From Streptomyces cyanogenus (GTDB taxonomy: Bacteria > Actinomycetota > Actinomycetes > Streptomycetales > Streptomycetaceae): a stretch of 64,000 nucleotides of DNA. The stretch spans positions 7,726,001 to 7,790,000 of the forward strand of contig NZ_CP071839.1 in assembly GCF_017526105.1 (NCBI RefSeq), read 5' to 3'. Both the position numbers and the translations under genes were made by a program. Below the pieces are notes generated by a model. The model did no database searches and had not been told where the DNA came from. It saw nothing but the letters and a program-made list of their open reading frames with translations. Below, piece after piece: positions 36,298 to 45,414 of this stretch (position 1 is its first letter; the number at the start of each line of letters is the position of its first letter).

Positions 36298-39200
36298 ATG
36301 AGCGAAGCCGGCAACGAGAACCCGGAAGTGACCGACCCGGTGGTGATCGTCGGTACCGCGTGCCGCCTTCCCGGGGGCATCGACTCGCCGGAGGAGCTGT
36401 GGCGCCTGCTGTGCGACGGCGAGGACGTCTTCGGGCCGTTCCCGACGGACCGCGGCTGGGACCTCGACGCGTTGTACGACCCCGACCCGGCGGCACCGGG
36501 CCGGAGTTACGTGCGCGAGGGCGGGTTTCTCGCCGGCGCCACTGAGTTCGACGCCTCGTTCTTCGGGATCTCACCACGTGAGGCCGAGGCGATGCACCCG
36601 CAGCAGAGGTTGCTGCTGGAGGTCGTGTGGGAGGCGCTGGAGCGCGCGGGCGTGGATCCCGCGACGCTGCGCTCCACCGCCACCGGCGTGTTCGTCGGTG
36701 CCGAGGCGCATGAGTACGGCCCGGGGCTGACCAACGCGCACGGTGCCGAGGGTCACCTGCTCACGGGCACCGCGGGCAGTGTCGCCTCCGGCCGTGTCGC
36801 CTACGAACTGGGTCTTCGCGGACCCGTGCTCACCGTGGACACGGCGTCGTCCAGCTCGCTGGTTGCTCTGCACCTCGCGGTGCGGTCGATACGCAGCGGG
36901 GAGTGCGCGCAGGCCGTCGTCGGCGGCGTCACGGTCATGCCGACTCCGGCAGCCTTCGTCGCGTTCAGCCGGCAGCGCGCACTGTCGCCCGACGCCCGGC
37001 CGAAGCCCTTCGGCGCGGACGCCAACGGCACCGCGTGGAGCGAGGGCGTCGGCGTGCTGTTCGTGGAGCGCCTGTCGACGGCCCGTGCCGAGGGACATGA
37101 GGTGCTGGCCGTGGTGCGGGGCTCGGCGATCAACTCCGACGGCGCCTCGGCAGGACTCACCGCGCCGAGCGAAGAGGCGCAGCGCGAGGTCATCGTCGCG
37201 GCCCTCGTCGACGCGGGCCTGCTTCCCTCCGAGGTGGACGCCGTGGAGGCACACGGCACCGGCACCCCGCTCGGCGACCCGGTCGAGGCCCGAGCGCTCA
37301 TCGCCACGTACGGACAGAACCGCGACCGGCCGTTGTACACGGGGTCGCTGAAATCCAACGTGGGGCACACCCAGGCCGCGGCCGGCGTGCTCGGCGTGGT
37401 GAAGATGGTGGAGGCCCTGCGGCGCGGCGTCCTGCCCGCCACCCTGCACGCCGAACCACCGACGCCGCACGTGGACTGGTCGTCCGGTGCCGTCGGACTG
37501 CTGACCCGGAAACGGGACTGGCCGGCCGGTGACGCCCCGCGCCGGTGCGGCGTGTCGTCCTTCGGGTTCAGCGGCTCCAACGCCCATGTCCTGCTGGAGG
37601 AGGCCCCGCCCGCACCCGACCCGGCGGTACGGGAGACCGTGTCGCATCCGGCCGCGTTGCCGCTGGTGCTGTCGGCGCGCTCCGCGGCGGCGTTACGTGG
37701 TCAGGCCGCCGGCCTGGTCGGACTGGAGGCCGATCCGCGGGATCTCGGACATTCGCTGCTGACCTCGCGTTCGCTGTTCGAGCACCGGGCGGTGGTCCTC
37801 GCTCGTGACGGGCTGGAGCAGTTCGCCCGGGGTGAGGTGACGCCCGCCGTTGTCGCCGGTGTGGCGGACGTCGAGGGCGGGACGGTATTCGTGTTCCCCG
37901 GTCAGGGTGCGCAGTGGGCCGGCATGGGGGCGCGGCTGCTGGACGAGTCACCGGTGTTCGCGGAGCGGATCGGCGAGTGTGCGGCGGCGCTGTCCGGGTT
38001 CACCGACTGGTCGCTGGTGGATGTGCTGCGTCAGGCCGAGGGTGCGCCGGACCTGGATCGCGTGGACGTGGTGCAGCCGGTGTCCTTCGCGGTGATGGTG
38101 TCCCTGGCGGCGTTGTGGCGTTCGCGGGGCGTGCATCCGGACGCGGTCGTCGGCCACTCGCAGGGTGAGATCGCTGCCGCCGTCGTCGCCGGGGCGCTGT
38201 CCCTGGAGGACGGTGCCCGCGTGGTCGCCCTGCGCGCCCGGGCCATCGCCCGACGGATCGCGGGTGACGGTCTCATGATGTCGGTGCCGTTGCCGGTGGA
38301 GCGCGTCGAGCCGTTGCTGCCCGCCGACGGGTCCGCGCAGATCGCGGCTGTGAACGGGCCGGCGTCGGTTGTCGTCGCCGGTCTGCCCGCCGCGCTGGAG
38401 ACGCTGTTCGACACGCTGACCGCCGACGGTGTACGGGTGCGGCGTATCGCCGTCGACTACGCCTCGCACACGACGCAGGTCGAGGCGATCCAGCATGAAC
38501 TGCTCGACCTGCTCGCGCCGATCCGGCCCCGGACCGGGCAGGTGCCGTTCTATTCGACGGTGAGCAGCGAATGGCTGGACACCGCGACGATGGACGCCGG
38601 CTACTGGTACCGGAACCTGCGCCACACGGTGAACTTCGGGCCCGCGATCGCCACGCTGCTCGACGACGGACACCGCGCCTTCATCGAATGCAGCCCGCAT
38701 CCCGTGCTCCGTGTCGGTATCGCCGAGGCGGTCGAAGCGGCCGGTGTGCGGGCCGTCGTGACGGGCACGCTCCGCCGTGGCGAGGACGGTCTGAACCGCG
38801 TGTTCACGTCGTTCGCCGAGGTGTTCGTGCGGGGTGTGACGGTGGACTGGTCCGGTCTGTACGAGGGCGGCCGCCGGATCGGCCTGCCCACCTACGCGTT
38901 CGACCGCCGCCGGTACTGGCTGGCCGGTCCCGGTGCCACGGCCGGGCCCGTGCGCCGACCGGAGCCCGTCGCCGACGTCCCGGCGCTCGATCGCGCGGCG
39001 CTCCTCGACGCCGTCCGGACGCAGGCCGCCGGCGTGCTGGGGCACACGGATCCGGCCGCGATCGACACGTCCCGGGAGTTCCGCGCCCTCGGTTTCGACT
39101 CGATCACCGCCGTCGACCTCCGTGAGCGGCTCGTCGCCGCACTGGGCATCGCGCTGCCCACGTCCACCGTCTACGACCACCCGACACCCGACCGGCTCAC

Positions 39201-45200: not shown

Positions 45201-45414
45201 GGACCGGCTGGAGGCGGCCGTCGCGGCCGCCGGCTCCACGACCGATCACGCGGCCCTCGCCGACCGGCTCGAGCAGCTCGGCCGACGGCTGCGGCAGGCG
45301 GAAACAGACGCGGCCGGACACGTCGGAGAGATCGACGTCGACAAGATCAACTCGGCTTCGGTCGACGAGCTGTTCACGATCATCGATGGCGAGCTGGGCA
45401 TCTCCCAGAACTGA
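36298..45414 (+). CDS. PKS loading module (KS-S) fused to fully reducing module 1
   Basis: 3038 residues. Loading part: KS with TASSSS, Ser184 replacing the catalytic Cys while the two His motifs ([13 protein letters not shown]) remain; AT with GHSQGE (619) and YASH (721), methylmalonyl type; ACP Ser935. Module 1: KS Cys1167, AT with GHSVGE and HAYH (1691), DH His1893 in [12 protein letters not shown] with the NADPH motif HAGAGGVG (2422), KR with LDD and Tyr2744, ACP Ser2910, then a C-terminal docking region. KS-S domains are typical of polyene loading modules (NysA, AmphA) and act as decarboxylases. A propionyl starter plus a fully reduced malonyl unit gives pentanoyl-ACP. It has no N-terminal docking helix, as expected for a first enzyme, and is 44 bp upstream of the next PKS gene. 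Codon 37693-37695 is TTA. In nystatin and pimaricin the loading module is a separate protein, so the fusion is notable. Confidence 0.96.
36322..39240 (+). other. Loading module: KS-S, AT(methylmalonyl), ACP
   Basis: Ser at 36847-36849 replaces the KS cysteine. The AT motif GHSQGE is at 38152-38169 and YASH at 38458-38469; ACP Ser (GFDSIT) is at 39100. No DH remnant follows the AT, unlike NysA as described for nystatin. Expected output is propionyl-ACP made by decarboxylating methylmalonyl-ACP. Confidence 0.92.
39283..45150 (+). other. PKS module 1: KS-AT-DH-ER-KR-ACP
   Basis: KS Cys at 39796, AT HAYH at 41368-41379, DH His at 41974, ER about 43132-44080, KR from 44095 with Tyr at 44527, ACP Ser at 45025. 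It is the only ER in the window, so only this unit should be fully saturated. Confidence 0.93.

What the first reader, a model, noticed from the sequence alone, without database searches (positions are those of the whole stretch)
36298..45414. Loading module fused to a complete DH-ER-KR module predicts an n-butyl polyene
The sequence shows KS-S, a YASH-type AT and ACP followed in the same protein by KS-AT-DH-ER-KR-ACP. Module 2 has only a KR. Together this gives propionate plus one fully reduced C2 unit before the lactone hydroxyl, i.e. an n-butyl side chain. Pimaricin has methyl there; lucensomycin is the known tetraene with butyl. Nystatin and pimaricin use a stand-alone loading protein, so the fusion is an uncommon way of lengthening the side chain.
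Basis: partly seen in the sequence, partly recalled or inferred. Interest (0 to 1): 0.72.

Follow-up and report, generated by a model that had tools for sequence, protein, structure and literature searches.

The report
Lucensomycin starter enzyme with a transplanted domain
This is the already published first enzyme of the lucensomycin (antifungal) assembly line, which very likely starts the chain with propionate to give a butyl tail; the sequence also suggests that its substrate-choosing part was copied in from another step of the same assembly line.

Summary
Window 36298-45414 encodes one 3038-aa protein: KS(Ser)-AT(GHSQG/YASH)-ACP followed by KS-AT(HAYH)-DH-ER-KR-ACP. The next gene begins with a KR-only module. 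The window lies in the lucensomycin (lcm) cluster of Streptomyces cyanogenus S136: all 12 published RT-PCR primers match exactly and the six amplicon lengths agree. The protein is LcmA, published in 2021 with the same reading, so the finding is known. The butyl prediction is sound: the carbon count and mass fit a propionyl starter, not acetyl, though mass alone cannot exclude a branched isomer. Calling the fusion 'uncommon' is not supported: thailandin and actinospene PKSs have it too. What I did not find in print: the loading module is a mosaic. Its KS and ACP are nearest to the actinospene loader, which has a malonyl-type AT. Residues ~440-868 (KS-AT linker plus AT) group instead with module 8 of the same assembly line, its only methylmalonyl-type extension module. 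This looks like a natural AT swap that changed the starter from acetate to propionate; mycolactone E is a precedent.

The parts
36298..45414 (+). LcmA: loading module fused to extension module 1 (3038 aa)
   Evidence: identity as lcmA
36331..37617 (+). loading KS-S (aa 12-440): Ser184 for Cys, His319 and His357 kept, Ser427 at the spacing reported for NysA S413
   Evidence: 85% identical to the ActnS0 loading KS
37615..38901 (+). segment of module 8 ancestry (aa ~440-868): KS-AT linker, methylmalonyl-type AT (GHSQG, YASH) and start of the post-AT linker
39010..39210 (+). loading ACP (aa 905-971), nearest to the ActnS0 loading ACP (67.6%, next 54.5%)
39283..40689 (+). module 1 KS (active-site Cys), aa 996-1464 with its C-terminal extension
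40816..41625 (+). module 1 AT, malonyl clade, HAYH motif (about aa 1507-1776)
41878..42669 (+). module 1 DH (aa 1861-2124)
43108..44082 (+). module 1 ER (about aa 2271-2595), absent from actinospene ActnS0
44095..44619 (+). module 1 KR (aa 2600-2774), B-type LDD
44950..45162 (+). module 1 ACP (approximate bounds around LGFDSL at aa 2906)
45459..49928 (+). first module of LcmB (module 2), KS-AT(HAFH)-KR-ACP, KR only; would set the lactone hydroxyl (end approximate)
3985..5274 (+). LcmC module 8 KS-AT linker and AT (GHSQG, YASH): nearest relative of the loading AT segment (bounds approximate)
20695..26064 (+). LcmD, module 12
26102..32074 (+). LcmE, module 13 with thioesterase motif
32150..36122 (-). 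lcm7 ferredoxin (32150-32344), lcm6 P450 (32362-33540), lcm5 aminotransferase (33573-34631), lcm4 glycosyltransferase (34698-36122)
   Evidence: names

Best explanation
LcmA starts lucensomycin synthesis. Its loading AT takes methylmalonyl-CoA, the Ser-type KS decarboxylates the ACP-bound unit to propionyl, module 1 adds malonyl and reduces fully to valeryl (C5), and module 2 (KR only) turns the C5 carbonyl into the lactone-bearing carbinol, leaving an n-butyl tail. Shown here: domain order, motifs, identity with the published lcm cluster, mass arithmetic and the mosaic ancestry. Inferred: all biochemical steps, and the direction of the domain exchange. By ancestry the loading module looks like a natural AT exchange: an acetate-type KS-S loader of the actinospene kind received the KS-AT linker, AT and start of the post-AT linker (aa ~440-868) of module 8, the methylmalonyl-type module of the same assembly line, which changed the starter from acetate to propionate. 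Against the same relative, module 1 also has a different AT and an ER.
For: Identity: 12 of 12 primers exact, six amplicon lengths as published, genome 8,773,899 bp against 8773 kbp. Product: lucensomycin [M+H]+ observed 708.3586; computed C36H53NO13 708.3590, homologue one CH2 smaller (acetyl starter) 694.3433. In S. collinus Inha504, disruption of a PKS gene of the homologous cluster abolished lucensomycin. Mosaic: aa 12-440 are 85.0% identical to the ActnS0 loading KS and 60.6% to module 8; AT 529-850 34.3% and 81.6%; the loading ACP is nearest to the ActnS0 loading ACP (67.6%, next best 54.5% among the ACPs compared). Two-junction fit over aa 1-900: 196 against 13 discriminating sites inside 440-868, 21 against 132 outside. 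Shuffling the 347 sites of aa 1-880 2000 times gave at most 101 against 287 observed. KS tree joins lcm KS0 with ActnS0 KS0 (100/100); AT tree joins lcm AT0 with lcm AT8 (96/88). AU tests reject AT0 with ActnS0 AT0 (p 1.4e-4) and KS0 with KS8 (p 2e-10 with actinospene KS8, 1.2e-6 without). The polyene loading ATs assayed in PMC12843615 are malonyl-specific except eurocidin and rimocidin, which take acyl-CoAs, so malonyl is the likely earlier state.
Against: No biochemistry on LcmA was found; PMC12843615 does not mention lucensomycin. Eurocidin and rimocidin loading ATs take acyl-CoA directly although they fall among extender-type ATs, so motif and kinship do not prove methylmalonyl use. A tree in which lcm AT8 and actinospene AT8 exclude AT0 is not rejected (p 0.074), so the copying may predate the split of the two clusters. 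The groups tested by AU were chosen after the windowed comparison, not before. One of five lcm loaders (L104) has Thr instead of Ser at 427. The n-butyl rests on MS match: no NMR in PMC7875965 or PMC10987574, and NMR failed for low yield in PMC8781583; a branched isomer has the same mass. Only one sister cluster (actinospene) stands for the unswapped state; pimaricin, nystatin and tetramycin loaders were not fetched.
Confidence: 0.82

Rival explanations
1. The loading AT takes propionyl-CoA directly and the KS-S is idle, as concluded for the rimocidin and eurocidin loading ATs.
For: Eurocidin and rimocidin loading ATs were shown to use acyl-CoAs although they group with extender ATs (PMC12843615).
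Against: AT0 is close kin of AT8 (81.6% in the AT domain), keeps GHSQG and YASH, and has the Arg at 646 found in all 40 rows (its role in binding the carboxylate is recalled, and no AT known to be acyl-CoA-specific was in the set). KS0 keeps both His and, in four of five lcm loaders, a Ser at the spacing of NysA S413.
Confidence: 0.13
2. The tail is branched: acetyl starter and a methylmalonyl unit in module 1 give the same mass.
For: Same formula; the identifications seen are by mass and fragments. Actinospene's module 1 AT is indeed methylmalonyl-type (YGSH).
Against: LcmA AT0 is methylmalonyl-type and AT1 sits in the malonyl-type clade (100/100 split).
Confidence: 0.04
3. No exchange: AT0 and AT8 look alike by convergence on the same substrate.
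For: ATs cluster partly by substrate.
Against: LcmA AT0 with linker (aa 450-880) is 77-78% identical to the four module 8 ATs but at most 61% to the other methylmalonyl-type ATs compared; the likeness starts and stops abruptly near 440 and 868 and includes the linker.
Confidence: 0.02
4. The reverse history: actinospene's loader lost a methylmalonyl-type AT and gained a malonyl-type one; the lcm form is the older.
For: AU does not reject AT0 branching before the lcm/actinospene AT8 split (p 0.074).
Against: The assayed polyene loading ATs other than eurocidin and rimocidin are malonyl-specific; the free tree puts AT0 with lcm AT8 (96/88). Even so a module 8 type AT must have entered a loader at some time.
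Confidence: 0.15

Closest known systems
LcmA of the lucensomycin cluster, S. cyanogenus S136 (PMC7875965, MW175861); LucA of S. achromogenes NBRC14001 (PMC8781583); LCM S0 of S. collinus Inha504 (PMC10987574)
   Same: It is this protein: same architecture and same proposed starter in S136; the same domain order is tabulated for NBRC14001; Inha504 has a 3033-aa homologue at 95%.
   Different: Nothing in architecture. The S136 paper says n-propyl, though its own C5 unit and the mass give n-butyl. The mosaic origin is not in the parts I read.
ActnS0 of the actinospene/kineosporicin cluster, Actinokineospora spheciospongiae (PMC8621364; L004)
   Same: Loading KS-S-AT-ACP fused to module 1; KS0 85%, KS1 84% identical.
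   Different: Loading AT is malonyl-type (HAFH), module 1 AT is methylmalonyl-type (YGSH), no ER.
Mycolactone E synthase MlsB loading module (PMC2569948)
   Same: Natural replacement of the loading AT, acetate to propionate, attributed to recombination with a neighbouring donor module.
   Different: Different PKS, whose like domains are over 98% identical; here the two ATs have diverged to about 80%.
PimS0, NysA, AmphA, RimA polyene loaders
   Same: KS with Ser in place of Cys, as reported in PMC8621364 and PMC4540446.
   Different: Loading AT reported malonyl- or, for RimA, acyl-specific; stand-alone loading proteins according to the lcm paper's contrast and recall. Their sequences were not compared here.

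Membership tests
lucensomycin LcmA | lies in the published lcm cluster | tested here: met
   12 of 12 published primer sites exact with published spacings
lucensomycin LcmA | domain order KS-AT-ACP / KS-AT-DH-ER-KR-ACP | tested here: met
   against the table
lucensomycin LcmA | makes lucensomycin with n-butyl tail | not testable with these tools
   published MS only; mass arithmetic agrees
polyene KS-S decarboxylating loading module | Ser for the active-site Cys, both His kept | tested here: met
polyene KS-S decarboxylating loading module | second Ser at the NysA S413 position | tested here: inconclusive
   Ser427 has the same spacing (243) in LcmA; Ser also in 3 more of the 5 lcm loaders and in ActnS0, but Thr in L104; NysA itself was not aligned
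polyene KS-S decarboxylating loading module | malonyl-type loading AT (usual, by PMC12843615) | tested here: not met
   GHSQG and YASH, methylmalonyl type
natural AT exchange | flanks and AT have different nearest relatives with sharp junctions | tested here: met
natural AT exchange | donor is the same cluster, after the split from the sister cluster | tested here: inconclusive
   favoured 96/88 but the alternative is not rejected, p 0.074

The most novel reading that the evidence does not exclude
The lucensomycin loader is a natural acyltransferase transplant. The AT of module 8, with its upstream linker, replaced the malonyl-type AT of an acetate-type KS-S loader within the same assembly line and turned an acetate-primed tetraene into a propionate-primed one. 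Nature used junctions much like those that protein engineers found to work (just after the KS, and at the LPTYAF motif after the AT), and the KS-S tolerated the new substrate.
Probability: 0.78. Interest if true: 0.5.

Novelty: already known. Interest (0 to 1): 0.32.

Why it matters
The protein and its product are published, so the original finding adds little. The mosaic is of some use: it would explain where the propionyl starter of lucensomycin comes from, gives a natural example of an AT exchange whose junctions can be compared with engineered ones, and provides a sister pair (LcmA and ActnS0) that differs by a few clean domain changes (AT0, AT1, ER) for testing starter-unit engineering in polyene antifungals.

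Tried and rejected
Fusion as the cause of the longer tail: rejected, because ActnS0 is fused as well and has no ER. Whole-module duplication of module 8 into the loader, suggested by the 68% overall match: rejected, because only aa ~440-868 match module 8 above the level of the other modules. The ER was not found to be copied from this genome: best other hit there 59%, best elsewhere outside lcm 66% in 150 Streptomyces genomes; donor unknown. My motif script missed ActnS0 because its motif reads DTASSGS; it was added by hand. In some searches the module 8 slice holds no ACP, so the counts there beyond about aa 885 are not a like-for-like comparison; I repeated the fit to aa 900, the shuffle to aa 880 and the ACP comparison by itself, and rely on these.

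Rows in and out of the trees (40 rows, none dropped): lcm loaders from the window, L001, L002, L003 and L104; L103 was left out as a probable second copy of L002's genome, L005 because it lacks the loading KS. Module 8 came from the window, L117, L118 and L119 only; the genome of L001 was not held and that of L104 was not searched for module 8.

Papers: PMC7875965 (section 8 and passages), PMC8781583 (first of four parts of the text, and passages), PMC10987574, PMC8944477, PMC8621364, PMC12843615, PMC4540446, PMC6273641, PMC10423236, PMC2569948 (passages only). That the exchange is not in print rests on searches (open-licence papers only) and on finding no 'swap' or 'duplication' in the main text of PMC7875965 and no 'recombination' or 'duplication' in PMC8781583; supplements were not read.

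Full report
What is there. The ORF at 36298-45414 encodes 3038 aa. Pfam and motifs give KS-AT-ACP followed by KS-AT-DH-ER-KR-ACP. The loading KS reads DTASSSS, with Ser184 where Cys is expected, and keeps both catalytic histidines; the loading AT reads GHSQG and YASH. Module 1 has a normal KS, a malonyl-type AT with the variant HAYH at aa 1691, and DH, ER and KR motifs. The downstream protein opens with a KR-only module.

Where it is. The window is G000:C1:7726001-7790000 of an 8,773,899-bp single-contig genome. The 2021 paper on the silent lucensomycin pathway of S. cyanogenus S136 gives a genome of 8773 kbp and prints RT-PCR primers for six lcm genes. All 12 match this genome exactly, and the six spans that I worked out from the match positions (355, 312, 446, 380, 430, 420 bp) equal the printed amplicon sizes. 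The PKS proteins are LcmC (9233 aa, modules 6-11), LcmD (12), LcmE (13, TE), LcmA (0-1) and LcmB (6446 aa, 2-5) (numbering). Between LcmE and LcmA on the minus strand lie ferredoxin, P450, aminotransferase and glycosyltransferase genes.

What is already known. Yushchuk et al. (PMC7875965) describe LcmA as an initiation module fused to module 1, propose methylmalonyl as starter substrate and malonyl in a fully reducing module 1, and call the fusion unprecedented in polyenes. They write n-propyl for the side chain, but their own C5 unit gives n-butyl once module 2 reduces the carbonyl. NBRC14001 has the same domain order; Inha504 has a 95% identical homologue, and there a PKS gene disruption abolished lucensomycin. 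A review lists propionyl as the primer for lucensomycin.

Does the product fit? Counting carbons from the domains: propionyl 3, thirteen extensions 26, one methyl branch 1, mycosamine 6, total 36. C36H53NO13 (lucensomycin; formula recalled, in agreement with the mass calculated in the paper) gives [M+H]+ 708.3590; observed 708.3586; the homologue with an acetyl starter would be 694.3433. Mass does not separate n-butyl from a branched isomer; the AT types do (AT0 methylmalonyl-type, AT1 malonyl-type clade). No NMR is mentioned in PMC7875965 or PMC10987574, and in PMC8781583 it failed for low yield.

Is the fusion unusual? It is found in other polyenes. Thailandin ThaBI carries KS(Q)-AT-ACP plus four modules. 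The actinospene loader ActnS0 is fused. Among 20 ORFs with a KS-S or KS-Q in the 77 loci found by similarity to LcmA, 12 exceed 2000 aa; this sample favours fused proteins by its construction.

How widespread. Among 392 Streptomyces genomes, 15 matched the loading KS at E <= 1e-185; three (this one, G119, G249) at 88% identity or more, the rest at 69% or less. Named orthologues are L001, L002, L003 and, without its loading KS, L005.

A mosaic loader. In a search of 61 genomes (at most 13 candidates scored in each) the best match to the loading module, apart from itself, was module 8 of the same cluster at 68%. A windowed comparison showed why: aa 12-440 are 85.0% identical to the ActnS0 loading KS and 60.6% to module 8 (58.1-62.4% to the other lcm modules compared), the AT (529-850) is 34.3% and 81.6%, and the loading ACP is nearest to the ActnS0 loading ACP (67.6%; next best 54.5%). 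The best two-junction fit is 440 and 868. Over aa 1-900 it leaves 196 against 13 discriminating residues inside and 21 against 132 outside. Shuffling the order of the 347 discriminating sites of aa 1-880 2000 times gave a score of at most 101 against 287 observed. The five lcm loaders, each compared with four module 8 sequences (20 comparisons), put the left junction at 427-440 in all 20 and the right at 866-868 in 18; in the other two, both against the actinospene module 8, the right junction ran to 900, the limit set.

Trees. Of 40 rows, the KS tree puts the five lcm loaders with ActnS0 (100/100) and module 8 elsewhere; the AT tree puts the same five with lcm module 8 (96/88), actinospene module 8 next. 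AU tests reject the swapped groupings: AT0 with ActnS0 AT0 (p 1.4e-4); KS0 with lcm and actinospene KS8 (p 2e-10) and KS0 with lcm KS8 (p 1.2e-6). These groups were chosen after the windowed comparison. Holding lcm AT8 and actinospene AT8 together without AT0 is not rejected (p 0.074), so whether the copying came before or after the split of the two clusters is open. DNA identity between the two ATs is 80-82% with third codon positions at about 64%, so the event is not recent.

Junctions. The left junction lies some ten residues after the SNAHV motif, the right one within or just before LPTYAF. PMC10423236 reports active engineered exchanges with upstream junctions near the start of the KS-AT linker and downstream junctions at the end of the AT or just before the residues that bind the KS, and names the LPTY(A/P)FQ motif. 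I matched these by landmark, not by their residue numbers.

Mechanism. Of the polyene loading ATs assayed in PMC12843615, those of eurocidin and rimocidin use acyl-CoAs and the others malonyl-CoA; lucensomycin is not among them. LcmA AT0 is instead an extender AT of methylmalonyl type. The KS-S would then decarboxylate methylmalonyl-ACP. Ser427 sits at the same spacing from Ser184 as NysA S413 from S170, a residue that mutagenesis linked to decarboxylation according to PMC4540446; it is Ser in four of five lcm loaders and ActnS0 and Thr in the other 35 of 40 rows, including one lcm loader. Direct loading of propionyl-CoA is not excluded.

Module 1. LcmA module 1 and ActnS0 module 1 share KS (84%), DH and KR, but across the KS-AT linker and AT identity falls to 27-53%, and the ER (about 320 aa) is absent from ActnS0. 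The nearest ER outside lcm among 150 Streptomyces genomes is 66% identical and the nearest in this genome 59%. Direction of these changes is unknown.

Verdict. The finding is real, correctly read in the main, and already published. The mosaic is a new detail of a known kind of event; replacement of a loading AT from acetate to propionate within the locus is on record for mycolactone E. I found no report of it for lucensomycin in the searches named, which cover open-licence papers only.

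Noticed in passing
L005 (S. poonensis), 10001 onward: The LcmA homologue starts at residue 445, next to the left junction, with no loading KS; the LcmB frame is broken and the best module 8 match in that genome was 58%, apart from its own loading AT. Decayed cluster or assembly fault.
   Followed up: partly
L004 10001-18145 (ActnS0): Acetyl starter plus methylmalonyl with DH-KR in module 1 would give a 2-butenyl (tigloyl-derived) tail on C25 without an inactive DH or a separate acyl ligase step; the paper calls the tail isobutenyl. 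Inference only.
   Followed up: no
L004 12944-15793 and 18261-20900: Two methylmalonyl-type ATs on the actinospene contig are 78% identical while their KSs fall in different groups, a second likely AT exchange.
   Followed up: no
window 45459-64000 (LcmB; its end lies outside the window): ATs of modules 3, 4 and 5 sit on very short branches, as if homogenised within the cluster.
   Followed up: no
window 41368-41379 (AT1, aa 1691-1694): Module 1 AT has HAYH instead of HAFH, in the four lcm rows compared and in L005.
   Followed up: no
Table 1 of PMC7875965 (not a sequence feature): It lists LcmB as modules 2-5 and LcmC as 5-10; the domain count gives 13 extension modules, with LcmC as 6-11.
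   Followed up: yes
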